A stretch of 64,000 nt of DNA, from NCBI GenBank assembly GCA_938031175.1, contig CALHGZ010000001.1, forward strand, positions 124,001 through 188,000, written 5' to 3'. Within the stretch, counting starts at the first letter, position 1; every line of letters starts with the position of its first letter. Of this stretch, positions 42,057 through 58,915 are shown one piece after another. Source of the stretch: Candidatus Kapaibacterium sp. (lineage in GTDB: Bacteria; Bacteroidota; Ignavibacteria; Kapaibacteriales; UBA2268). A program made the translations under genes and the position numbers. The notes beneath the pieces were generated by a model, which was given only the letters and a program-made list of their open reading frames with translations, did no database searches and was not told the DNA's origin.

Positions 42057-45000
42057 TTATTTTATAATCACCATTTGCCTTGTTTCAGTAAACGGACCTG
42101 ATTCAAGCTTATAGTAATAAGTGCCGGAAGGTAAATTATCAACGTTAATATCTATTTGATATTTACCTGGAGATTGGTTTTGGTTAATTAGCTCAGCCAC
42201 TTTGTTACCATAGCTGTCGAATAATGTTAATTTTACATTAGCTTCGAGGCCTATGGAGTATTCAATGGTTGAATTTCTTTCAACTGGGTTTGGCATAGGT
42301 ACAGATAAGCTGTATTCGACACCTGATACTTTGACTAATCTTAATGTATTGACACATACAGGTTGGATTTTTACTAAGCCAGGTATTTCTGTTACGAATA
42401 CATAGGGTTTGCCAACTGGATCGAAATCAACTGGTAAGGGAACTTGTTCAATATCGCTGAGATATACTCTCAATGGGAATTTAAATAATGTTCCTGTACC
42501 TTTCAATGGTTCATTGCTTTCCATGTGCACATATAGATATCTTTCGTCAACAACTTCAGCAGTGATAATCTGCCAACCATCAGTCATAGTTCCATTGGTT
42601 ATAATATCATTTTTGTTGATAACTGAAGGAAATACATCAAAGGTGTTCGTGTTTCTTCCCTCTATTCTGAAGTATATCATAGCTTTAAATTCTTTAATAT
42701 CGGCAAGTTCAAGAGCTTTTTGCTCTTCTTCGTGTTTTGGCAGATTTACATCAATAATTATTTCTTCACCGGGTCTTCCAATATATTTATCTGGGATTTG
42801 GGCTTTGACTTTGTGAATCATACCTTCTCCCCATAAGTTGGAAACGGCATTACCGGCCGAAGAGTTATAAAGTATTTGAGCGTGATATTTACGAACTTCA
42901 AATGGTGTGAAAACAACGTCTAAGGCTAAGGATTCGCCTTCATTGACTGTGATTGGTGGTTGTGGATTAACTGTTCCATTTGAATGTCTAACTCTTATTA
43001 ATTGGAAGAAGTTTTGGTCATCGCCAGTTATTGATAGTGGGTGATCTATAACAGCTGGCTTTGTTCCTAAATTGGTGAAATAAACAGTTGCTTCGGGTGA
43101 TTTAGTTGTTATGTAACGAATTGGGAATGTATGATCAGTTGCTGATACGCCTTCTGTGATTGCTCTTCCGATTAATTCGCCGCGTGGATCTTCTGGTGCA
43201 TCATGGTCGGCAACTAAATAAGCTGTATGAATACCTGGATGTTTAGCAGTGAATTTAATTGGGACTGGCAGCTGATCGCCAGGTTGAATTACCAAAGTGG
43301 GTACTGGATTTTGCACAAAGAAATCAGGATCAATTTCGAATGCATCGGCATCGGGTCCAATGATTTTAAGATCGAATATTGATAATGGCATTTTTGTTAA
43401 TTCGCTGGCGCCAAAGCTGTATAGTGTACCATGACCTTCAACGGAGGTACCAACTAATACTGGTGCTCCGTAATCATGTCCTTCGATATTTATATGAGGT
43501 TGCATTTCAATGCCGCGCAATTCAGCTGAGGCTGTTTTTCGTTCTTTGTTAAATTCGGCTATAAATGTGATGGTTGATACATATTCTTCAACATCGTCTT
43601 TATCGGAAGTCTTTGGTGCAAAGAATACTGGGACTTTAATTGGATTATTTGCTTTTAGCTGTAATGGAATCTTGGATTTATCAATTCTGAATACGCCATT
43701 GAAATCATTTTCGATAACAATATCTATGAAATCGAGTAGGGTACCAGATTCACTATAGTTATCAATTTCGATTTCTGCAGGATATTCTGTGATTCCTAAT
43801 TTGTTGACAGAATAATCATCAATGACACGTCGTTTGTACCAATCATAACCAGTTATATAAGGACCGGCTTCAATACCATTTCCAATCCAAACTGAGTATA
43901 ATTTGCGTTTTTCTGCATTTGATGTAAACCAGGCAGTATCAATATCTGTAGCTCCGGCTTTATCGGGTTTGTACCATACTGTAAATCGGTGTTCTCCGTA
44001 TGGTTGTAATACTATCGGGAATTTGAGGTCAGTACGGGTGAAATGTAATTTATCATTCCATTTGATGGTGTATAATTCAACGGGTAAGTTACTTTCATTG
44101 ATTATTCTTACAGTTTGAGGTTTCTCGTTATTGACCGGAATGTCTTTCCAGGTAGCATCACCAATCCAGACAACAGGTTCGCCTGTTCTAAGCTCGACTT
44201 TTGCGATTGGAAGTTCGTAGCAGGTTAATTCCACATAAATTGAATCTTCTACTGGTTCAGGACTTAATTGAAGTGCAGTACCGCAAACTTCGAATGTTTT
44301 TTTCTCACCTGGTTGTAGAGTATAAGGTAGTCCCTTGACTTTGAGTTCAAATTCAGGTTTTTGGAATTTTAATTTAATTTCTTTGACAGTAACTGGAATA
44401 GGAAATCTCCCGGGATTGCGTAGGGTGATCTCCTGACATTTTGTTTCATTTAAAGCTAAAAGTCCGAAATTGATATAGTCCGGTATTGCTTCGATTTGCT
44501 CTGGGAAATATTCATAGGTTCTCGAAGCTATATTACCTGAACGAGATTGTGCATAAACAGTAGCTTTGGCAGGTTTAGATTTATCTTTAACTGTGAGATA
44601 ATAATTTGCAACTTTAGCTTTTTTGGGGTCAAACTTTTCGACTTCGAAATTGTAATTTTCTTCATCGCTAATCCAGACATTATAAATTATTGCACAAGAT
44701 GAATCAGGTGGAACAACATAAACAGTACCAGTTGCATCACCACAGTCTATTTGGTCAATGATATAGATGGAATCAACACAAGGCGTAGAGTAATTTATAC
44801 CAATTGGATAGCCGTAAGCAAATCCGTCTTTGGAATAGTCCCAGTTGCCATAGGCATAACCAGCGAATTTCGCACCATTTCTACCTTCGACAAAGTGGTC
44901 ACCTTGTCCAATAACTTCAGTTACATAGCTGTAAGGTGTTCCACTAATTTCTTTCATAACATTTCCGAAAACAGCTGGGAAGCTCTTACCATCAATGTAT

Positions 45001-46322
45001 AAATTTTCGAAATGTTCTGTTTTAAATGTAAAGTAAACAAAGTTATCCATACCAAATGGCACTCTGAATACGGAATAATTTGTCCATTGTTCTATTGGAG
45101 TAAGCGCAAACATCATACCTTGTCCATTTCGGGGTGGATTTTGGATTGCATCAGAGGGATCATCCTTTTTATCTGTTCCAACTGTGCTTGACCACCAAGC
45201 TTTTCCATATTGACCAACTAATACAGGATGATTGGCGCGATAGTAAGCAGCTAATTCCTGATTTGTAATGTCATACCATTGACCAGCTTTCATAGTGGGG
45301 GATATCTGGTAAAATCCACTGCCATCTTGACGCATTTGGTAAATTATTGTATTGTCAACAGTAGCAACAAATCGGATGATGTCACCCTTTAAGTCTTCTA
45401 CCATATTTTGTGCGTTGTAATAGCGGTTCAAATATTTGATCGGAGCGGAAATGTATTCTCTACCAAGTAATTCTACGGGCCACATTGCGTCAACCATCAT
45501 ATTTCGCATAAAGTCAGATTTCAAGCTACCAAGAAATACCTCTCTAAATCTTGGGAATGCACCTTTGGTATGACCTGAAATTACTGCAATTGGTTTGTTT
45601 GCTTCGATATATGTCCCTGATAAATCAGTAGCCCAGTCGTGGTTTAGGTTAGGATAAACTTTTGCTAAAATCAGGAAAGTTTCGCCTTTGTTCATTTTTA
45701 CTGTTTTTGTTTCGCCTTTTTTAACACCGCCTTCCGTATCAGCAGTTGGTCTATATTTGACTACTGTATTGTCCTCAGTAGCGACAATGACTATTTGAGC
45801 GGGGTGATATTCGGTACTTCCGGAAGCCATTTTTACACGGTCTTGATACATATTAAGTGTATAGTATTTTGTACCGAGCCATTCTACAGGAGTACAACGA
45901 TAAGCTTCACCAGTCCATTTGTAAGCGTAGAAAACGGAGACGTTAATGGGATCTTTTCCAATTATGTGGACACCTTTAGGTTGAACAACTTCACTTTCTT
46001 TCATTTCGAGAAAATCCGGTACGTAGATAACTCGAACGCGATTAGCTTGTATTGGAAGTGTTTGGGATAGTGTGCCATCAGCTGAGGTCATTGTTATCAT
46101 TGTATTAACTTTGGATGAGACCCACAACTCTATTGGATATATTCCCCATCGGACATTTTCAGTAGATGATCGATTACACTTTGTAAATCCAATCCAATAT
46201 TCACGGCCGTCGTGAATTTGTTCCTGTTCGGGAACATCTTTGTTTGCTTTTAAAGTATTATTAGGAAATGCAAAAAATGCCATCATAGCCATAATGGCAA
46301 TAATGTAAACTGTTTTTTTCAT
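42057..46322 (-). CDS. Giant secreted T9SS protein, IgGFc-binding-like and ASH-type domains (copy A)
   Basis: A 1421-residue secreted protein. A signal peptide (about 1-26) is followed by an IgGFc-binding-protein-like domain (about 38-520) with GREYWIGF and VEWLGTKYY blocks. Several choice-of-anchor-D/ASH-like beta domains follow (PDYINFGLLALNET opens the first near residue 615), then a cohesin-like segment (GRPGEEIIIDVNLP near 1180). A T9SS type A sorting domain ends it (about 1335-1421: PNPVERNSTIEYS... ending MVIIK). Full-length paralogue of the next gene. An AGGAGG-type SD precedes the ATG. Surface or secreted adhesin-like role inferred. Confidence 0.85.
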   Translation of the reverse strand: MKKTVYIIAIMAMMAFFAFPNNTLKANKDVPEQEQIHDGREYWIGFTKCNRSSTENVRWGIYPIELWVSSKVNTMITMTSADGTLSQTLPIQANRVRVIYVPDFLEMKESEVVQPKGVHIIGKDPINVSVFYAYKWTGEAYRCTPVEWLGTKYYTLNMYQDRVKMASGSTEYHPAQIVIVATEDNTVVKYRPTADTEGGVKKGETKTVKMNKGETFLILAKVYPNLNHDWATDLSGTYIEANKPIAVISGHTKGAFPRFREVFLGSLKSDFMRNMMVDAMWPVELLGREYISAPIKYLNRYYNAQNMVEDLKGDIIRFVATVDNTIIYQMRQDGSGFYQISPTMKAGQWYDITNQELAAYYRANHPVLVGQYGKAWWSSTVGTDKKDDPSDAIQNPPRNGQGMMFALTPIEQWTNYSVFRVPFGMDNFVYFTFKTEHFENLYIDGKSFPAVFGNVMKEISGTPYSYVTEVIGQGDHFVEGRNGAKFAGYAYGNWDYSKDGFAYGYPIGINYSTPCVDSIYIIDQIDCGDATGTVYVVPPDSSCAIIYNVWISDEENYNFEVEKFDPKKAKVANYYLTVKDKSKPAKATVYAQSRSGNIASRTYEYFPEQIEAIPDYINFGLLALNETKCQEITLRNPGRFPIPVTVKEIKLKFQKPEFELKVKGLPYTLQPGEKKTFEVCGTALQLSPEPVEDSIYVELTCYELPIAKVELRTGEPVVWIGDATWKDIPVNNEKPQTVRIINESNLPVELYTIKWNDKLHFTRTDLKFPIVLQPYGEHRFTVWYKPDKAGATDIDTAWFTSNAEKRKLYSVWIGNGIEAGPYITGYDWYKRRVIDDYSVNKLGITEYPAEIEIDNYSESGTLLDFIDIVIENDFNGVFRIDKSKIPLQLKANNPIKVPVFFAPKTSDKDDVEEYVSTITFIAEFNKERKTASAELRGIEMQPHINIEGHDYGAPVLVGTSVEGHGTLYSFGASELTKMPLSIFDLKIIGPDADAFEIDPDFFVQNPVPTLVIQPGDQLPVPIKFTAKHPGIHTAYLVADHDAPEDPRGELIGRAITEGVSATDHTFPIRYITTKSPEATVYFTNLGTKPAVIDHPLSITGDDQNFFQLIRVRHSNGTVNPQPPITVNEGESLALDVVFTPFEVRKYHAQILYNSSAGNAVSNLWGEGMIHKVKAQIPDKYIGRPGEEIIIDVNLPKHEEEQKALELADIKEFKAMIYFRIEGRNTNTFDVFPSVINKNDIITNGTMTDGWQIITAEVVDERYLYVHMESNEPLKGTGTLFKFPLRVYLSDIEQVPLPVDFDPVGKPYVFVTEIPGLVKIQPVCVNTLRLVKVSGVEYSLSVPMPNPVERNSTIEYSIGLEANVKLTLFDSYGNKVAELINQNQSPGKYQIDINVDNLPSGTYYYKLESGPFTETRQMVIIK

Positions 46323-46554: not shown

Positions 46555-49500
46555 TTACTTTACAATAGCAAATTTTCTTATATCTTTGTATGGACCTGAT
46601 TCAAATTTTATGATGTAAGTTCCAGAAGATAAGCCAAGTTTATTAGTATCAAATTTAAGTTCGTACTGACCAGGATCTAGTTCCTCGTTGACTAAATCAT
46701 AAAGTTTTTTACCATTATTGTCATAAAGTGAAATTTTTGTCATTGCCTTTATTGCTATAGTATACTCTATCACAGCAAATCCTTCGGTTGGATTTGGAGA
46801 TATATTGGATAAGCCGTATTGCATGCCTGATATTTTGATTAATCTCAATGTATTTACGCAAACTGGGTCAATTAGTATTTCACCAGGTTCATTTTCTACT
46901 ATGACATAAGGCTTGTTGATTGGTTCAAAGGATAAAGGCAGAGAGACTTTATTTATGTCTGTTAGAAAAGTCAATAGTGGGAATTTGAACAATACCCCCG
47001 AGCCGCTGAGGGATTTATTAGCTGAGAAACTTACTTTTAGATATTTTCCTTGCAAAATATCTGCAGAATTTACTTTCCATCCTTGGGTTATTGTGTTTTC
47101 AGTTATTATATCTTCCGGACTGCTGACATTTGGGAATATATCTTCTATTTCTTTTGGGCGACCATCTTCTTTGAATTGAATAACTACATCGAATTCTCTA
47201 ATGTTAGTAGTTTCTAATGCCTTTGACTCATCCGGATGCCTTTCAAGAATTACTTCAATAATAGTGAGCTGACCAGGGTATGAACGGTAATATTTTGGTA
47301 TTTTAGCTATGGTTTTAAATATCATACCTTGACCGGTTAATATTGATACTGCATCTCCTATATCTGTTTTGTAATTGATTTGTGCATTATATTGCCTAAC
47401 TTCACGTGGAGTGAATTTGAGATAAACAATAAGTTTGTCATTTGGTTTGAGTTTGAATGGAGGTATTGGGTTATGTTCATTTGTGGATTCAATTATCCAT
47501 CTTTGAATTGAGAATTCATTTATATCATTACCAGAAACAACAATTGGTGCATTAATTGTAATTTCATCGCTTCCGGTGTTTTCAAGGTATACATATTCTT
47601 CTTGTGATGGTAAAGTAATAAAATGAGTGCCAAAATCCCTATCTATGGCATACAATCCTTGGGATTTTCCCCAACCGATTAATATACCATTCGGATCTTC
47701 AGGTGCATTATGTTCAGCTTTTAAAATGGCAGTATGCCTTCCTGTATGTGTTGCAGTAAATCTAATTGGTATTTTGACCTCTTCGGATGGTTTAATTGTG
47801 AGTGGTAAAGTGTTTTCTAAGAAATTCTGGTCAATTTTAAAGCTGTTTTGCTCTGGTCCTTCAATCCATATATTTGTTACTGTCAAATCCATTTTTGAGT
47901 TGTTATTTTTTATTAAGCTTAAAACTTTACCAAATCCATCTAGTGATTCATTTACAAGTACTGGTGGTGTAAACTCGTAGCCTTCTATACCAATGTGAGG
48001 TTGGAGTTCGCCACCACGGACAAAATCTTCAGCTTCTAATGTTTGATTGGCATCGGCAAATTTGGTTATAAATTTGACTTTAGTTGAGTAATCAGTTATA
48101 TCATCAATCTCATCGGGTTTAGGTCGGAAATAAACCTTAAAACTAAGTGTATCTTCAGGACGTATAATAGTTGGAAATCCCGATTTGTCGAGTTCAAAAA
48201 CACCACCAAAAGAGTCTTCAAGGAATAAATCTACACATTGCAATTCCGTATTGCCAGTGGACCCAATTTTAATAGTTCCTTCATATTGTGTAATGCCAAG
48301 TTTATTAACTGAATAATCATCAATTACTCTTTTCCTTAAGAAATCGAAACCCTCAACCCAAGGACCTGCCTGTATTCCATTTCCAGTCCAATCGGAGTAG
48401 AGTTTAATTATATCAGTTGATGCTTTGAACTCTGCTCTTGTTTTATGTAACACGCCTGGTTCATCAGGAACATAAAATGCAGTGAAGAAGTAAGACTGAT
48501 TGGGGTCAAGTCTTAGAGGTAAAGGTAAATTTTCGACTTTTGGGAAATGTAGTTTATCGGGCCAACTAATTGAATATATAGTAGCTGGGAGTGAACCTTC
48601 ATTACGAATTTCAACCTGTTTTGCTCGCATCATGCCGACAGGTACATTTGTCCAAGTAGCATCGTCTATCCAGATCATTTCTTCTCCAGTTGTCATTTCC
48701 AATCGCACAAGAGTTTCAGTATAGCATTTTAATTCTACAAGTAATGAATCAAATACAAGTTTTGGAGTTTCAGGTAGGGCAGTTGCACATATTGTTATAT
48801 TTATTGACTCGCCGGGTTTTAATGTTTTCGGGAGTGGATAGTTCTCAAATGTGAATTCAGCTTTGTTGAATTTCTTTTTTAAACTCTTAAACTCAAGAAG
48901 AATGTTACCTTTGCTTATATTAGTGAACTTTACTTCTTTGCATACTTTTTCACCAACTTTTAATCTTCCAAAATTAACAAGTTCGGGTTCAACCTTAATT
49001 TCTTCGGGGAAATATTCATAAGTTCTGGTAACAGATTTACCAGAACGTGTCATACTGGTAATAACAGCTTTTGCATATTTTTTAGGATCTATGACTTTTA
49101 ACCAATAGTTGCCTAATTTTGCTTTTTCTCTATCAAAGTTTTCGACAGTAAAATCGTAATTTTCTAATTGGCTTGAACTACTTGTGATAGAAAATAATAA
49201 AGCACAGGCTGAATCGGTTGGTACTACATAGGCAGTGCCATTGACGTCCCCACAAAATTCTTTGTCAAGTACGTAAATTGAATCATCGCATATTGATGCA
49301 TAGTTTATTCCGACAGGATAGCCATAAGCGAAACCATCTTTTGTATAATCCCAGTTTCCATAAGCATAAGCTGCAAATTTATGCCCGCTATCGGCTTCAA
49401 TCCAGTGATCACCAGCGGGTACAGTTTCAGTTACATAAACGTACTTTGTACCAGCTATCGGTGAGATTGAATTACCAAATCTAGCTGTAAGGGGTTGACC

Positions 49501-50805
49501 ATCAAATCTGATGTGATTTAAGGAATTTTCTTCAAAAGTGATATAGACAAAGTTGTCCATTCCACTGGGTGAGCGAAATTGAGCATATCCACACCAGTGA
49601 TCGATGGGTGCTAATATTAAAAGCATGCCCTGACCATTTCTATGCGGGTTTTGTATCTCGTCAGTTTTTGATATAGTTTTTTCATCTGCTCCGGCTGGTA
49701 CAGGTTCGTTCATCCAGGATTTCCCGTATTGAGCAGCGAGAACAGGCTTTGTTGAGCGATAGTAACCTGGATATTCTTGATTGGTTATATTATACCATTC
49801 GCCAGCTTTTAAAGTTGGACTAATTTTTTTGAAGCCTGAGCCATCGTTCCTCATTTGATAAATATCAGTGTTATCTTCAGTTGCTACAAATCTTATTAAG
49901 TCACCATAATCATCAACCGCATAAGAACGTCCTCTTGGTCTGTCAAAATATTTAATAGGAGCTGAAATATACTCTTTACCTAAAAGTTCTATAGGCCATA
50001 GCATTTCGATCAACATATTTCTCATAAAATTAGCCCATCTTTCAACGTAATTAGCTGGCATACCACGTTGATAACGTGGGAAGGCACCCTTGGTATGACC
50101 CGAGAGTACAGCAATTGGTTTTGATGCACTGATGAAAGTTCCGGTTAAGTCAGTTACCCATTCACGTTTGAGATTTTGATAAGATTCGATATCACCTTCG
50201 ATAAGCATTGCGTCGCCTCTATGCATTGTAACTGTACGAACCTGTCCTTTTTTAGCTTTGACTGTGTTAGCAGCGGGTCTGTATGATACAGTTGTATTAT
50301 TTTCAGTTGCTACGATTACTATTTGAGGTGGTTTGAAATCGTTTGTCTGATCAAGATACAGATTTGTTGTAATATATTTTTTCCCAAGCCATTCAACAGG
50401 GATGCAGCGATAAGCTTCGCCAGACCATTTATATGCCATAAAAACAGCGACTGTTATTGGATCAGCTGATTCAACGTGAACGCCATAGGGAGTAATTACT
50501 TCGGATTCTTTAAGCATTAATATATCGTGCATTTCAACAATTGTAGTTTTGTTAGCTTTAATTTCAACAACTTTTACGAAATCAATCGCTGAAGCTGTAA
50601 TTTTTGCTGTTGTATTGACTTTTGAAGATAACCAAAGCATAATCGGGTATTCGCCCCATCTAATTGGTTCATTTGGTGCTAAACGACAATGTGGAATGGC
50701 AAGCCAATATTCTCTCCCTTCAGTGATTTCCTGCTCTTTGGCTAGTAGGTTAATCAATGGAATAATGATTAGGAGTAAAATCGGGAAAAAGTATAAACGT
50801 TTCAT
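46555..50805 (-). CDS. Giant secreted T9SS protein, IgGFc-binding-like and ASH-type domains (copy B)
   Basis: A 1416-residue paralogue of copy A with the same domain order: signal peptide, IgGFc-binding-like N-terminal region (GREYWLAIP...VEWLGKKY), ASH/choice-of-anchor-D domains (PELVNFGRLKVGEK), an 'EGYEFTPPVLVNESLDGFG' block shared with copy A, a cohesin-like part, and a T9SS C-terminal domain (SNISPNPTEGF... ending FAIVK). An AGGAG SD at 50817-50813 on the minus strand precedes it. It has its own terminator, so the two are separate units. Long beta-rich, non-catalytic architecture suggests adhesion or matrix function. Confidence 0.85.
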   Translation of the reverse strand: MKRLYFFPILLLIIIPLINLLAKEQEITEGREYWLAIPHCRLAPNEPIRWGEYPIMLWLSSKVNTTAKITASAIDFVKVVEIKANKTTIVEMHDILMLKESEVITPYGVHVESADPITVAVFMAYKWSGEAYRCIPVEWLGKKYITTNLYLDQTNDFKPPQIVIVATENNTTVSYRPAANTVKAKKGQVRTVTMHRGDAMLIEGDIESYQNLKREWVTDLTGTFISASKPIAVLSGHTKGAFPRYQRGMPANYVERWANFMRNMLIEMLWPIELLGKEYISAPIKYFDRPRGRSYAVDDYGDLIRFVATEDNTDIYQMRNDGSGFKKISPTLKAGEWYNITNQEYPGYYRSTKPVLAAQYGKSWMNEPVPAGADEKTISKTDEIQNPHRNGQGMLLILAPIDHWCGYAQFRSPSGMDNFVYITFEENSLNHIRFDGQPLTARFGNSISPIAGTKYVYVTETVPAGDHWIEADSGHKFAAYAYGNWDYTKDGFAYGYPVGINYASICDDSIYVLDKEFCGDVNGTAYVVPTDSACALLFSITSSSSQLENYDFTVENFDREKAKLGNYWLKVIDPKKYAKAVITSMTRSGKSVTRTYEYFPEEIKVEPELVNFGRLKVGEKVCKEVKFTNISKGNILLEFKSLKKKFNKAEFTFENYPLPKTLKPGESINITICATALPETPKLVFDSLLVELKCYTETLVRLEMTTGEEMIWIDDATWTNVPVGMMRAKQVEIRNEGSLPATIYSISWPDKLHFPKVENLPLPLRLDPNQSYFFTAFYVPDEPGVLHKTRAEFKASTDIIKLYSDWTGNGIQAGPWVEGFDFLRKRVIDDYSVNKLGITQYEGTIKIGSTGNTELQCVDLFLEDSFGGVFELDKSGFPTIIRPEDTLSFKVYFRPKPDEIDDITDYSTKVKFITKFADANQTLEAEDFVRGGELQPHIGIEGYEFTPPVLVNESLDGFGKVLSLIKNNNSKMDLTVTNIWIEGPEQNSFKIDQNFLENTLPLTIKPSEEVKIPIRFTATHTGRHTAILKAEHNAPEDPNGILIGWGKSQGLYAIDRDFGTHFITLPSQEEYVYLENTGSDEITINAPIVVSGNDINEFSIQRWIIESTNEHNPIPPFKLKPNDKLIVYLKFTPREVRQYNAQINYKTDIGDAVSILTGQGMIFKTIAKIPKYYRSYPGQLTIIEVILERHPDESKALETTNIREFDVVIQFKEDGRPKEIEDIFPNVSSPEDIITENTITQGWKVNSADILQGKYLKVSFSANKSLSGSGVLFKFPLLTFLTDINKVSLPLSFEPINKPYVIVENEPGEILIDPVCVNTLRLIKISGMQYGLSNISPNPTEGFAVIEYTIAIKAMTKISLYDNNGKKLYDLVNEELDPGQYELKFDTNKLGLSSGTYIIKFESGPYKDIRKFAIVK

Positions 50806-54034: not shown

Positions 54035-55474
54035 TTAACCTTTGATTACGGCTAAAGGCTTTAATTGAGCAATTTTTTCTGCAATACCTGCATTATGGAC
54101 AATATCAACTACTGAATTAATACTTTTGTAAGCTTCAGGGGCTTCTTCGCTAAGCCCTTTAAGTGAGCCGGTAATAATATCTATTCCTCGGTTTTTTAAT
54201 TCTTTAATTAATTTATGTGGGTCGAGAGATTTGCGGGCTTTTGTTCTGGAAAGCATTCTTCCAGCACCATGACATGTTGAACCGAATGATTCAATCAAAG
54301 CTTTATCGGAGCCGACTAAAATGTAAGAAGAAGTTCCCATACTTCCTGGAATAAGTACAGGTTGTCCAACATCACGGTACTTGAGCGGTATTTCAGGATG
54401 ATGAGCGGGAAAAGCTCTTGTAGCACCTTTGCGATGCACAATAAGTTTTTTCTTGAAATTATTAATTGTATGCTCTTCAATTTTAGCTATATTATGTGCC
54501 ACATCGTATAATACTTCAATTTTACTATTATTTTTCCCGAAGACATTTTTCCATGCTTCACGTATTTGCCAGGTTATGAGTTGGCGGTTTGCCCAAGCAA
54601 AATTAGCGGATGCACTCATAGCAGCAAAGTAATTTTTACCAACATCGGAATGAATAGGGGCATAAGATAATTCTCTGTCTGGCAGAGTTAATTTGTTTTG
54701 AGCGGCATATTGAAGCATTAGCTTTATATAATCGGTTGCAACTTGATGACCTAGACCCCTTGAGCCAGTGTGAATTTGAATAACTATTTGACCTTCGAAT
54801 ATTCCGAAGACTTCGGCTACTTTTTTGTTAAATATCTTTTCGACTTTGTCAATTTCAACAAAATGGTTACCAGCCCCCATTGTTCCCAATTGGTCAAATC
54901 CTCTCTCTTTTGCTTGTTTTGATACTTTGTCGGCATCAGCTGATTTTAGACTACCAGATGATTCAATGAACTCAGAATCTGATTTGTCAGCGAATCCTTC
55001 TTTTACAGCCCATTCAACACCAGTATTGAGGACAGCATCGAGTTCTTTTTGATTCAGTTTAATTTTTCCACTTTTACCAACACCGGAAGGAATCATGTTA
55101 TATAACTCTTTCCCGATTTTTTCTATATGTTTTATAATATGATTATTGTGAAAGTTTGTTTTTAGTAGTCTAACTCCACAATTAATGTCATATCCGATTC
55201 CACCGGGAGAGATAATCCCCAATTCGTAATCAATTGCTGCGACGGCACCGATAGGAAATCCATAGCCTTCGTGAACATCCGGCATAACAACAGCTGAGTG
55301 CACTATACCAGGTAAAGAAGCAACATTTATCAATTGTTGCAGAGATTTATCAGATTTTATATGGCTTAACATATCGATACTTGCAAATATTCTTGCGGGA
55401 ACCAGCATATCTTTGCGGGTTGTTTTGGGTATTTCCCACAAATATTCGCTTATTTGAACGAGTTCTATGTTCAT
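54035..55474 (-). CDS. rtcB: RNA ligase RtcB (long, archaeal-type)
   Basis: tRNA-splicing-type RNA ligase joining 2',3'-cyclic phosphate or 3'-phosphate to 5'-OH with GTP. At 479 residues it matches the archaeal length, longer than the roughly 408-residue E. coli enzyme. Motifs: MPDVHEGYGFPIG, GGIGYDINCGVR (metal Cys), GAGNHFVE, HTGSRGLGHQ, HRKGATRAFP, PGSMGTSSY, and HGAGR whose His is guanylylated. The sequence resembles what I recall of Pyrococcus RtcB. It lies 126 bases downstream of gatD. No archease or RtcA is visible. Confidence 0.95.
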   Translation of the reverse strand: MNIELVQISEYLWEIPKTTRKDMLVPARIFASIDMLSHIKSDKSLQQLINVASLPGIVHSAVVMPDVHEGYGFPIGAVAAIDYELGIISPGGIGYDINCGVRLLKTNFHNNHIIKHIEKIGKELYNMIPSGVGKSGKIKLNQKELDAVLNTGVEWAVKEGFADKSDSEFIESSGSLKSADADKVSKQAKERGFDQLGTMGAGNHFVEIDKVEKIFNKKVAEVFGIFEGQIVIQIHTGSRGLGHQVATDYIKLMLQYAAQNKLTLPDRELSYAPIHSDVGKNYFAAMSASANFAWANRQLITWQIREAWKNVFGKNNSKIEVLYDVAHNIAKIEEHTINNFKKKLIVHRKGATRAFPAHHPEIPLKYRDVGQPVLIPGSMGTSSYILVGSDKALIESFGSTCHGAGRMLSRTKARKSLDPHKLIKELKNRGIDIITGSLKGLSEEAPEAYKSINSVVDIVHNAGIAEKIAQLKPLAVIKG

Positions 55475-55599: not shown

Positions 55600-56985
55600 T
55601 TATTTTTTATACTTTGAGATAAATTCTTCTACTTCGGGAATGCCACCCTGATAAATTAAGTAACCGTTGCTTGGTTCCCGTTCAGTAATTTCACCAGCAA
55701 TTGGTGTTAGCATGATTTTTTTGACTTCCTCTAAGTCATTTGTTTGACCTAAAGCCCAACCTAATTTAACATAGGCAACTTCAGGAAGCATGTTTGCAGC
55801 AGGAACGACACCAAGTTCCATCATATCTCGGCCAGTGTCATAAACATACATCTGTACATAGCCCCAAAGTGTTTGTACTGTCATATAGACGGCAATATTG
55901 TTTTCCTGGCATTTTTTTAGTGCTGGATAAAGTGGTTTATTCACATGTCCAAGTCCAGTGCCGGCAATAACAATTCCTTTGTATCCATTATCAATCATTG
56001 AATATATTATATCGGGGTGCATATTGGGGTAATAATAAACAATTCCGACCCTTTCTTCAAAGAAAGGTTTTAGAATGACTTTTTTATCTGATCGTCGCTT
56101 TTTGTAATCATTACGCAAAGGGGTTATCTTTTCTCTGTCAACCATAGCTATTGGTATGTCACCGATTGTTCTGAATGTAGAACGATAGCTTGAGTGCATT
56201 TTTCTGACCCTAGTGCCTCTATGTAGTAAACCATAAACGTCGGAAGTAGGACCGAACATACATACCATAATTTCAGCAATATCGCTCTCGGCGGCAGTTT
56301 TGACGCTATGAATTAGGTTTAGTGCAGCATCGCTAGATGGACGATCGCTGGAACGTTGAGAACCTACCATAACTATTGGAACGGGAGATTCTTGAATCAT
56401 AAAAGATAAAATTGCTGCTGTATGATGCATTGTATCAGTTCCATGGCCAATTACTATACCCTGGACACCTTTTTCAATTTCTTCAGCAACTTTTTTAGCC
56501 GTGCCAATCCATTGTTCCGGTCCCATGTTTTCGCTGAAAACTCCATATAGTTTTTCTGTTTCAAGGTTGCATATATCTGCCAATTCTGGTACTGAACCGT
56601 ATAATTCACCGGGGGAAAAGGCTGGTATAACAGCACCTGTGCGGTAATCTAATCGGCTTGCTATCGTACCTCCTGTACCAAAAAGCTTGACGCGTGGTTT
56701 TTTGGGGTCATAAGGAAATTCTTTTTCAGGGATTTTGTAGTGTGCTTCTTTACGCCCGTTTATTTTGATGTCTTTGATTTTACTTGCAGCTATACCTATG
56801 TTATAGCCCGTGGGTAATTTTAGCACAATATGAAATTCATCAGCTGTTTCAGAACGTGGTAATATTATTCCAGTGAATACTGTTTCTTTGGTTTCTATTT
56901 CCACATCGCTCCATATTTTTGCATCGAATTTTTTTAAAGTCTCAAGTGCAATCCCTTTGTAACCTTTAAATGATTCGTTATTCAT
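55600..56985 (-). CDS. gatD: Glutamyl-tRNA(Gln) amidotransferase subunit D
   Basis: Glutaminase subunit of the GatDE complex that converts Glu-tRNA(Gln) to Gln-tRNA(Gln). Its 461 residues comprise an N-terminal Tudor/Sm-like GatD domain (about 20-80, WSDVEIETKETVFTGII) and an asparaginase-like domain. Catalytic Thr are T104 and T107 (GTGGTIAS), followed by GHGTDTMHHT (Thr-Asp) and a lysine after the RGTRVRK motif. GSQRSSDRPSSDAA is family typical. The N-terminal domain distinguishes it from plain asparaginase. It starts two bases after the gatE stop, so the two are coupled. Normally an archaeal gene. Confidence 0.92.
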   Translation of the reverse strand: MNNESFKGYKGIALETLKKFDAKIWSDVEIETKETVFTGIILPRSETADEFHIVLKLPTGYNIGIAASKIKDIKINGRKEAHYKIPEKEFPYDPKKPRVKLFGTGGTIASRLDYRTGAVIPAFSPGELYGSVPELADICNLETEKLYGVFSENMGPEQWIGTAKKVAEEIEKGVQGIVIGHGTDTMHHTAAILSFMIQESPVPIVMVGSQRSSDRPSSDAALNLIHSVKTAAESDIAEIMVCMFGPTSDVYGLLHRGTRVRKMHSSYRSTFRTIGDIPIAMVDREKITPLRNDYKKRRSDKKVILKPFFEERVGIVYYYPNMHPDIIYSMIDNGYKGIVIAGTGLGHVNKPLYPALKKCQENNIAVYMTVQTLWGYVQMYVYDTGRDMMELGVVPAANMLPEVAYVKLGWALGQTNDLEEVKKIMLTPIAGEITEREPSNGYLIYQGGIPEVEEFISKYKK

Positions 56986-56986
56986 C

Positions 56987-58915
56987 TCAATCTCCGTTGA
57001 AAATCATTGTCAATAAAGTTTTAACTTGTTGGCCTTCAACAGTCCCACGTAATTGATTCATTATTATTCCGGTATAAATATCTATTTTTTTCTCCGGCTT
57101 ATTTATTTTTAAGTCATTGTAGTTTTTTAGGATATTGTCTACTTTTTTACCAAGTTCGAAACGAGTCAATGGCTTGGGTAAATTTTGCTTTGAAAAATGC
57201 CCAATTTTTATAATATTTTCCATAATTGGTAAGAAAGCATCTTTTACGAATTGACCTTCGCTGTGGGCTGTTAATAATTCAAGCATAATTTCAGGTGTTA
57301 ACTTTGCAATATCAAGTTTCTTTTTTTTCAGCTTTTTGGGATATTCAATTAATACAACAGCGGTTAATTTTGGATTGACTTTGAGTTGAGTAACAGCTTT
57401 TTCGAAAACTTTTGTATATTTTGAACAAGCAAGTTCTTGAATTAAGTTTTCTGGTAATTGTAATTGTTTAAACCATTTTTCATAATTCCAAAATTGAACG
57501 GGTAGTTTTTCTCTAATAATTTGAATCCTTTCCTGGGAAATTTTTTTTGGTGGTAAATCAGTATCTGGATACATTCTCTGTGGACCGGGTAGAATTCTTT
57601 CGAAACCAGTTGTACCATCTCGCAATGCTTGTCTTGTTTCAGATGGAATGCCAATTGTTGCCTCTTTTGCACGGATTATAATTTCTTTGGCACCAGTTTC
57701 AGCATCTTCCTTATTTCCCCAAACTAAAACAATGCTGTCATCTTCAGTAGCACCGACAAATTTTTTAATATGTTGCCATTCTGAGGAAAGTAGAGATTCA
57801 CTTGGGCTATCAGAGTGAATAATATTTGGTAATGACGTCAAGCAGGCAATTACTCTTACTCTGTCGGAGAGTTCTTTCGAAAAGTATGTACCAGTCTGAG
57901 TTTCCCAACGTAGTAAGTTTTTGAAGTTACGTAGTGTAACGCAATTAACAATTTCACCGGATTTGATAGCATTATAAATGGGCTGGTAACTTGTATTACG
58001 CAAAAGTTTTGTAACTTCTGTATAATAGGCTGAAAAAGTGTTTTCTGTTATACCTCTTCTATTCAATTCATCTCTCAGTTGTAAAAGTCTCCATTGCCTT
58101 CTGGCTTCGTTATAGGTCAAAAGTGGTATTCTTACGATTCTATGAACTCCCTTAATTTCAATTCTCGTGCCACCGATAACACTGACGTTGACGTCTTCTC
58201 TTGCAGCTCCAATTCCTGTTCTTACTTTGTGAGTAGTTCTAACAAGTTTTCTGAGTATGTTGTTTACATCAGCAACTTCAAATGGAGTAAGCATTTCTGG
58301 TGCTGTAACAGTTTCGATAAGAGGCATACCAAGACGATCAGTAAGATACACCCTTTGATGACCGACATCACTAAATTCACGGCAGGAATCTTCTTCAATT
58401 GACATTTGTATTATGTTTATCTTCCTATCTTTGAATGGAATCCAACCACCTACACTAACTATAGCAGTTCTTTGAAAACCAGTAGGTATGCTCCCATCTA
58501 AATATTGCTTCCTTGAAATATGAATTTCGTCAACTATGTTCGCATTTAATAGCATTGCTATTTCAATGGCAATATCGAGAGCCTGCTCGTTCATTTCAAA
58601 AGGTGGAGTATCGTCCATTTCATAGGTGCAAACTGTGTCATAATTTATCCGATAAATGATTTCTTTTTTTGTTTTGAATTCCATTAAAGCTGTTCCGTCA
58701 TATTCGCCAAGTTCGGAGAGGGTAGGGCGCATATGACGTAAGATTTCGGCATTATAATAATCAGAATATCTACCGGCTGGGCATCGGCAAAATAGTTTTT
58801 TTTCTGTCATTAATTGTTGATGTACCTCTAGCCCGGATTTAAAACCTATAAAGTGATAGTCATCTTCAGTCATTGCTTGGAAAGGTTTAAAATTGAATTG
58901 GTCATATATTGACAT
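56987..58915 (-). CDS. gatE: Glutamyl-tRNA(Gln) amidotransferase subunit E
   Basis: Kinase/transamidase subunit of GatDE, 642 residues, within the archaeal size range. Motifs: GLEVHQQLMTEKKLFCRCP (positions about 29-47), LRPTLSELGEYDG, GFQRTAIV, EEDSCRE, and EIKGVHRI. A bacterial-AspRS/GAD-like insert and a C-terminal helical tail resembling the YqeY/GatB tail domain follow. It resembles GatE rather than GatB: it has the insert, and pairs with gatD rather than gatA/gatC. First gene of gatE-gatD, with rtcB downstream. Confidence 0.92.
   Translation of the reverse strand: MSIYDQFNFKPFQAMTEDDYHFIGFKSGLEVHQQLMTEKKLFCRCPAGRYSDYYNAEILRHMRPTLSELGEYDGTALMEFKTKKEIIYRINYDTVCTYEMDDTPPFEMNEQALDIAIEIAMLLNANIVDEIHISRKQYLDGSIPTGFQRTAIVSVGGWIPFKDRKINIIQMSIEEDSCREFSDVGHQRVYLTDRLGMPLIETVTAPEMLTPFEVADVNNILRKLVRTTHKVRTGIGAAREDVNVSVIGGTRIEIKGVHRIVRIPLLTYNEARRQWRLLQLRDELNRRGITENTFSAYYTEVTKLLRNTSYQPIYNAIKSGEIVNCVTLRNFKNLLRWETQTGTYFSKELSDRVRVIACLTSLPNIIHSDSPSESLLSSEWQHIKKFVGATEDDSIVLVWGNKEDAETGAKEIIIRAKEATIGIPSETRQALRDGTTGFERILPGPQRMYPDTDLPPKKISQERIQIIREKLPVQFWNYEKWFKQLQLPENLIQELACSKYTKVFEKAVTQLKVNPKLTAVVLIEYPKKLKKKKLDIAKLTPEIMLELLTAHSEGQFVKDAFLPIMENIIKIGHFSKQNLPKPLTRFELGKKVDNILKNYNDLKINKPEKKIDIYTGIIMNQLRGTVEGQQVKTLLTMIFNGD

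What the first reader, a model, noticed from the sequence alone, without database searches (positions are those of the whole stretch)
55600..58915. Archaeal-type gatE-gatD pair in a bacterial genome
GatDE is generally regarded as the archaeal Glu-tRNA(Gln) amidotransferase; bacteria use GatCAB. Here both subunits are complete, in tight order (one base between stop and start), with the diagnostic GatD N-terminal domain and catalytic residues, and GatE motifs such as LEVHQQL and EEDSCRE. All other genes in the window are bacterial. It implies transfer from archaea, or an old bacterial GatDE lineage, and raises the question of whether the organism has GatCAB too.
Basis: partly seen in the sequence, partly recalled or inferred. 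Interest (0 to 1): 0.82.

Follow-up and report, generated by a model that had tools for sequence, protein, structure and literature searches.

The report
Bacterial GatDE beside glutaminyl-tRNA synthetase
This uncultured bacterium carries an intact enzyme pair for putting glutamine on its tRNA that reviews describe as found only in archaea, and it keeps the pair although it also has the direct enzyme for the same job; the same combination turns up in many other uncultured bacterial phyla.

Summary
Window 55600-58915 (- strand) encodes complete, tightly coupled gatE and gatD, far above the curated GatE/GatD cut-offs, full-length alignable to the archaeal crystal structures, with every catalytic residue checked. 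It is not a chimera or a one-off: most genomes of the host's GTDB family carry it, and GatE relatives occur in uncultured bacteria of more than ten phyla, mostly as a gatE-gatD pair. Trees place the window inside an Ignavibacteria/Kapaibacteria clade, apart from the few archaeal sequences available. So it is an established bacterial lineage, not a recent gift from archaea.

The surprise is the context. The host has a complete GlnRS and AsnRS and no detectable GatA or GatB, so GatDE is not its only route to Gln-tRNA(Gln). In the family, GlnRS and GatCAB exclude each other (19 genomes), while GatDE accompanies either. About 42 of 50 GatDE bacteria sampled carry GlnRS. Both host tRNA(Gln) are bacterial type (U1-A72, G73), not the A1-U72 that archaeal GatDE reads. 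GatE and GatD are under strong purifying selection (dN/dS about 0.05-0.09 and 0.02-0.03) even beside GlnRS.

Most likely role: a Glu-tRNA(Gln) amidotransferase kept as a second or repair route. The substrate is inferred, not shown.

The parts
56987..58915 (-). gatE: Glu-tRNA(Gln) amidotransferase subunit E, 642 aa
   Evidence: E30, H32, E174, E175, E201 (M. thermautotrophicus E13, H15, E157, E158, E184) invariant in 112/112 sequences
57524..58837 (-). GatE catalytic (GatB_N) domain, aa 27-464, interrupted by the GAD insertion
   Evidence: Pfam PF02934, 8e-48
57698..57976 (-). GatE GAD (AspRS-like insertion) domain, aa 314-406
   Evidence: Pfam PF02938; such an insertion is characteristic of GatE (own knowledge)
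57008..57409 (-). GatE YqeY-like tail, aa 503-636
   Evidence: Pfam PF02637; aa 461-642 is the least conserved part, 29-39% within the Ignavibacteria clade against 76-84% for the cradle
55600..56985 (-). gatD: Glu-tRNA(Gln) amidotransferase subunit D, 461 aa
   Evidence: T107, T183, D184, K262 (M. thermautotrophicus T101, T177, D178, K254) invariant in 88/88
56764..56913 (-). GatD N-terminal domain, aa 25-74, which separates GatD from plain asparaginases
   Evidence: Pfam PF18195, 8e-15
55711..56694 (-). GatD asparaginase-like amidohydrolase domains (N-terminal aa 98-289, C-terminal aa 312-425)
   Evidence: Pfam PF00710 and PF17763
56986..56986 (-). single-base gap between gatE stop and gatD start; the gatD Shine-Dalgarno-like GGAG lies inside gatE
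   Evidence: sequence; gatE and gatD are neighbours in nearly all bacterial loci long enough to show both (99 of 114)

Best explanation
The pair is a functional bacterial GatDE, a Glu-tRNA(Gln) amidotransferase. GatD would release ammonia from glutamine, and GatE would activate the glutamyl group on Glu-tRNA(Gln) and amidate it to Gln-tRNA(Gln). In this host GlnRS makes most Gln-tRNA(Gln) directly; GatDE is kept as a second route that also converts any Glu-tRNA(Gln) made by a GluRS descended from a non-discriminating enzyme (or by GlnRS error) before it reaches the ribosome. Shown: gene identity, catalytic residues, purifying selection in relatives, presence of GlnRS and AsnRS, absence of GatA/GatB hits, bacterial-type tRNA(Gln). 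Inferred: substrate, recognition of U1-A72 tRNA(Gln), and the backup or repair role.
For: Equivalog-level identity of both subunits. All catalytic residues checked are invariant in 112 GatE and 88 GatD sequences. The gatE-gatD pair holds together while its neighbours change. In close pairs dN/dS is about 0.05-0.09 for GatE and 0.02-0.03 for GatD; many of these genomes also have GlnRS. GatE end branches in the family are similar with GlnRS (0.23-0.35, G007 excepted) and without it (0.23-0.34), as expected if GlnRS does not replace it. In the family GlnRS replaces GatCAB without overlap while GatDE stays with either. The GluRS belongs to the same lineage as that of GlnRS-less sisters (59-64% identical to those in the family), which need Glu-tRNA(Gln). 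One Neomarinimicrobiota MAG (G382) has GatDE, two GluRS, bacterial-type tRNA(Gln), and no GlnRS, GatA or GatB hit, which would fit GatDE as sole amidotransferase.
Against: GluRS of GlnRS-bearing genomes has lost residues fixed in GlnRS-less relatives: Val at T. thermophilus position 443, 17/18 against 1/11; Phe at 368, 18/18 against 2/11. This suggests that GluRS there charges tRNA(Gln) less or not at all, leaving GatDE little substrate. Only two supported independent pairs back the trend. No well-complete genome relying on GatDE alone was found; G382's completeness is unknown. Archaeal GatDE reads A1-U72 (PMC9499178), which the host's tRNA(Gln) lack.
Confidence: 0.6

Rival explanations
1. GatDE in GlnRS-bearing bacteria has a different amidation substrate (another Glu-tRNA, or Gln-tRNA made for something other than translation) and is no longer needed for Gln-tRNA(Gln).
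For: Strong purifying selection beside GlnRS; GluRS drift at positions conserved in GlnRS-less relatives; bacterial-type tRNA(Gln) without the archaeal determinant; fast-evolving tail.
Against: No conserved neighbour hints at another pathway. GatDE also occurs with GatCAB and without GlnRS (G010, G012, G013, G016, G306), where its ordinary substrate exists. Catalytic residues are unchanged.
Confidence: 0.2
2. GatDE is the main Gln-tRNA(Gln) route and GlnRS is weak, isoacceptor-restricted or non-functional, as PMC3927822 suggested for the GlnRS of Ignavibacterium album.
For: Two tRNA(Gln) isoacceptors, UUG and CUG, with different acceptor stems. GatDE conserved beside GlnRS across phyla.
Against: Host GlnRS is complete with HIGH and VMSKR motifs and 819 bits. 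GatCAB is lost exactly where GlnRS is present in the family, so GlnRS works there or GatDE alone suffices. The CUG tRNA also occurs in the GatCAB-only relative G002.
Confidence: 0.12
3. Relic: an acquired archaeal-type pair now redundant and drifting, kept only because loss is recent.
For: The G007 copy evolves fast (GatE 42% to the window against 62% for G004). GatDE is patchy across genomes.
Against: dN/dS about 0.05-0.09 in GatE, invariant catalytic residues even in G007, intact frames almost throughout.
Confidence: 0.06
4. Recent transfer of gatED from archaea into this genome, or assembly contamination.
For: GatDE is described as archaea-only in a 2022 review (PMC9499178).
Against: In 15 of 19 family genomes and across the class; base composition not foreign (gatE 35%, gatD 39%, window 33% GC); 61-66% identity to most class relatives against 33-35% to archaea; tree position inside an Ignavibacteria/Kapaibacteria clade.
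Confidence: 0.02

Closest known systems
Archaeal GatDE (M. thermautotrophicus 2d6f, P. abyssi 1zq1)
   Same: Both subunits full length, same domains, same catalytic residues
   Different: 33-35% (GatE) identity; gatE-gatD coupled with a one-base gap; found with GlnRS, which archaea lack; host tRNA(Gln) U1-A72/G73 instead of A1-U72/A73 (PMC9499178); fast-evolving tail
Bacterial GatCAB
   Same: GatE and GatB share the catalytic cradle and the YqeY tail; same reaction on Glu-tRNA(Gln)
   Different: Asparaginase-like GatD instead of the amidase GatA; GAD insertion in GatE; no GatA or GatB hit in the host; GatC was not searched
GlnRS plus GatCAB bacteria (Deinococcus, Thermus, Bdellovibrio; PMC4206432)
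   Same: A direct synthetase and a tRNA-dependent amidotransferase in one cell
   Different: There GatCAB can make Asn-tRNA(Asn); here the amidotransferase is GatDE, which in archaea serves only Gln, and AsnRS is present
Type I asparaginases
   Same: GatD's amidohydrolase core
   Different: GatD has the extra N-terminal domain and an adjacent gatE

Membership tests
GatDE, Glu-tRNA(Gln) amidotransferase | Both subunits above the curated GatE and GatD equivalog cut-offs | tested here: met
GatDE, Glu-tRNA(Gln) amidotransferase | GatD N-terminal domain plus asparaginase core with Thr-Thr-Asp-Lys | tested here: met
GatDE, Glu-tRNA(Gln) amidotransferase | GatE cradle with the active-site Glu and His residues, GAD insertion, YqeY-like tail | tested here: met
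GatDE, Glu-tRNA(Gln) amidotransferase | GatE groups with archaeal GatE, not with GatB | tested here: met
   all GatE rows against GatB, support 100
GatDE, Glu-tRNA(Gln) amidotransferase | Substrate tRNA(Gln) with A1-U72 | tested here: not met
   Both host tRNA(Gln) are U1-A72, G73. This describes archaeal substrates, it does not define the protein family; it lowers confidence in the substrate, not in family membership
GatDE, Glu-tRNA(Gln) amidotransferase | Amidates Glu-tRNA(Gln) in vitro or in vivo | not testable with these tools
   needs biochemistry
GatDE, Glu-tRNA(Gln) amidotransferase | Works without GlnRS in the cell, as in archaea (context, not a defining feature of the proteins) | tested here: not met
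   Host has complete GlnRS; about 42 of 50 GatDE bacteria have GlnRS hits
GatCAB | gatA and gatB present | tested here: not met
   No GatA or GatB match in G000 while relatives ring

The most novel reading that the evidence does not exclude
A widespread bacterial branch of GatDE that has adapted to U1-A72 bacterial tRNA(Gln) and serves, beside GlnRS, as a dedicated Glu-tRNA(Gln) editing-by-conversion enzyme (or amidates a new substrate), with GatDE acting as the bridge that let lineages swap GatCAB for GlnRS.
Probability: 0.35. Interest if true: 0.8.

Novelty: new variant of a known kind. Interest (0 to 1): 0.62.

Why it matters
A review states that GatDE is found only in archaea and that archaea never have GlnRS (PMC9499178), and uses this to argue about LUCA and about why GlnRS never moved into archaea. 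A bacterial GatDE lineage over many phyla, mostly beside GlnRS and with bacterial tRNA(Gln), contradicts the first statement and makes the incompatibility argument testable. It also bears on how cells survive the switch from the indirect to the direct route of Gln-tRNA formation, where misacylated Glu-tRNA(Gln) is the danger. The genes are probably already named GatD/GatE by automatic annotation; six literature searches here turned up no paper that discusses them in bacteria.

Tried and rejected
(1) RtcB downstream (54035-55474) as part of the operon: not conserved; gatED neighbours change between loci apart from each other. (2) A special third tRNA(Gln) or archaeal-type tRNA as the substrate: own-genome pattern and covariance-model searches gave only UUG and CUG tRNA(Gln), both U1-A72; the CUG gene also occurs in a GatCAB-only relative. 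(3) T. thermophilus GluRS Arg358 as a marker of discrimination: Arg in all in-family and in-order GluRS aligned, with or without GlnRS, so uninformative. (4) GlnRS frames over 800 aa as fusions: mostly upstream open frame in GC-rich DNA; only G398 (Gemmatimonadetes) has a C-terminal YqeY-like tail by eye. (5) More archaeal sequences for the tree: the 80 best genome-contig loci are all bacterial, and archaeal genomes could not be reached by handle; only two PDB rows and one divergent Natrinema plasmid copy were available, so the direction of the ancient transfer stays open. (7) No structure was predicted: full-length matches to two GatDE crystal structures made it unnecessary.

Full report
Observation. 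Both pass the curated equivalog cut-offs for GatE and GatD by a wide margin, while GatB models and the type II asparaginase model do not reach theirs. All diagnostic domains are present. They align end to end with the GatDE crystal structures of Pyrococcus abyssi and Methanothermobacter thermautotrophicus. Catalytic residues known from the archaeal enzymes (residue numbers recalled from the literature, positions checked on alignments) are all there: GatD T107, T183, D184, K262; GatE E30, H32, E174, E175, E201.

Not an artefact and not a single transfer. The window lies at 124001-188000 of a 296.7-kb contig of a 2.69-Mb, 97% complete genome. GatDE is in 15 of 19 genomes of its GTDB family. In a draw of 345 genomes from the phylum, GatE over the cut-off occurs in 25, all in the host's class. 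A scan of one genome per species for 84,980 species found at least 553 relatives; the best 80 are all bacterial: Ignavibacteria, Kapaibacterium, Aminicenantes, Phycisphaerae and other Planctomycetota, Neomarinimicrobiota, Cloacimonadota, Krumholzibacteriota, Fermentibacterota, Myxococcota, Gemmatimonadota, Zixibacteria, Electryoneota, WOR-3, Caldisericota, Acidobacteriota and Bacteroidales (names as in the records). Nearly all of these are metagenome-assembled. Relatives branching with the window on the GluRS and GatE trees include Ignavibacteria RIFOXYC2_FULL_35_21 and a Kapaibacterium, so the host is probably a Kapaibacteria-like member of Bacteroidota (inference).

Phylogeny. With GatB as outgroup, all GatE form one group (100). 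The three archaeal rows lie on one side and 69 bacterial rows on the other, with only moderate support for the bacterial side (SH-aLRT 82; 76 in a second, smaller tree). The window sits in a fully supported Ignavibacteria/Kapaibacteria clade of 33 rows and with its own family. GatD gives the same picture with the same odd placements (Aminicenantes L094/L100 inside the Ignavibacteria clade; G180 with Bacteroidales), so the two genes travel together. Few archaeal sequences were available, so which domain had GatDE first is not resolved.

Context in the host. It has a complete GlnRS (577-codon open frame, 819 bits, HIGH and VMSKR motifs), a complete AsnRS, one GluRS, and no match to GatA or GatB although both searches ring in relatives. 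GatC was not searched. Thus the genome lacks GatCAB in practice, does not need it for Asn, and has GlnRS for Gln. Across the family, GlnRS (11) and GatCAB (8) exclude each other without exception over 19 genomes (G009 keeps GatA alone), while GatDE occurs with GlnRS (10) or with GatCAB (5). Outside the host's order but in the class, GatDE, GlnRS and GatCAB often occur together. Among 50 GatDE bacteria from many phyla about 42 have GlnRS hits (40 over the cut-off, the others partial) and 16 have GatA over the cut-off. In a second lineage around a Neomarinimicrobiota MAG, five of seven GatE-bearing genomes without GatB carry GlnRS (one partial); G432 is too incomplete to judge; G382 has neither GlnRS, GatA nor GatB but has two GluRS. 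The base rate of GlnRS in these phyla was not controlled for, so co-occurrence is described, not claimed as an association.

tRNA. The host has two tRNA(Gln) genes, UUG and CUG, both U1-A72 and G73. tRNA(Gln) of other GatDE bacteria, incl. G382, G379, G388 and G403, are also U1-A72. The exceptions among those read are the UUG tRNA of G008 (GlnRS + GatDE) and of G024 (GlnRS only), which are A1-U72. Archaeal GatDE is reported to read A1-U72 and the D-loop (PMC9499178), whereas U1-A72 is the bacterial determinant for GatCAB and GlnRS (PMC9976931). Bacterial GatDE must therefore recognise tRNA differently or act on something else. Within GatE, the cradle is 76-84% identical in the class but the C-terminal third (aa 461-642) only 29-39% (G180, a copy of the Bacteroidales type, left aside).

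Selection and GluRS. In close pairs of Ignavibacteria with both genes, dN/dS is about 0.05-0.09 for GatE and 0.02-0.03 for GatD; many of these genomes also have GlnRS and GatCAB. No pair close enough was at hand for the window itself. GatE end branches in the family are of similar length with and without GlnRS, except G007, whose GatE and GatD evolve fast but keep the catalytic residues. Function is thus retained beside GlnRS. GluRS tells a more nuanced story: in the host's order, position 443 (T. thermophilus numbering; next to anticodon-contacting residues by my recollection of that complex) is Val in 17 of 18 GlnRS-less genomes and in 1 of 11 GlnRS-bearing ones (G009, which keeps GatA, was left out of that count and has Val); Phe368 is 18/18 against 2/11. 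Recent acquirers seem to keep one or both ancestral residues (G001 both, G009 Val, G007 Phe). The tree gives only two supported independent contrasts, both in the same direction. This fits GluRS relaxing or becoming discriminating once GlnRS arrives, as reported for clades of bacterial GluRS (PMC3927822).

Mechanism. The most economical reading: ancestors used non-discriminating GluRS plus GatCAB; gatED entered and provided a second Glu-tRNA(Gln) amidotransferase; GlnRS then arrived repeatedly and GatCAB was lost (AsnRS covers Asn); GatDE was kept to convert Glu-tRNA(Gln), as backup and as repair. The identity, integrity, selection and gene context are shown; the substrate and the role are inferred. 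The main rival is a changed substrate. G382 is the best available hint that bacterial GatDE can carry Gln-tRNA formation alone, but its completeness is unknown.

Novelty. The protein family is known; bacterial members are probably already auto-named by NCBIfam, but I found no paper describing them, and a 2022 review states GatDE is archaea-only (PMC9499178). The bacterial branch, its company with GlnRS and its bacterial tRNA(Gln) make it a new variant of a known kind.

Noticed in passing
GluRS loci L162-L240, T. thermophilus positions 443 and 368: Two GluRS positions fixed in GlnRS-less genomes of the order vary in GlnRS-bearing ones: possible markers of loss of tRNA(Gln) charging.
   Followed up: partly
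L012 (G007): gatE and gatD of this genome evolve several times faster than in its family while all catalytic residues are kept.
   Followed up: partly
G382 (L112, L233, L234): Neomarinimicrobiota MAG with GatDE, two GluRS, and no GlnRS, GatA or GatB hit: candidate for GatDE as the only amidotransferase.
   Followed up: partly
L189 (G008) and L190 (G024): UUG tRNA(Gln) has A1-U72 instead of U1-A72 in two GlnRS-bearing genomes without GatCAB: perhaps release from the GatCAB determinant.
   Followed up: no
L192 with G403:C7:152409-154146; G363, G365, G366, G367, G368: tRNA(Gln)-CUG next to glnS in a Bacteroidales MAG; gltX and glnS close neighbours in several Ignavibacteria.
   Followed up: no
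L074 and G043:C45:508058-512924: glnS lies immediately downstream of and convergent with gatED in one genome of the class.
   Followed up: no
window 54035-55474 (-): RtcB-like RNA ligase directly downstream of gatD on the same strand; not conserved elsewhere.
   Followed up: yes
window 42057-46322 and 46555-50805 (-): Two adjacent, similar secreted proteins of about 1420 aa with a C-terminal sorting-type domain, apparently a tandem duplication.
   Followed up: no
L274 (G398, Gemmatimonadetes): GlnRS with a C-terminal YqeY-like tail as in Deinococcus, in a GatDE-bearing genome (by eye).
   Followed up: no
L161 3001-4487: Unannotated, divergent gatE-like frame on a Natrinema megaplasmid without a detected gatD beside it.
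   Followed up: no
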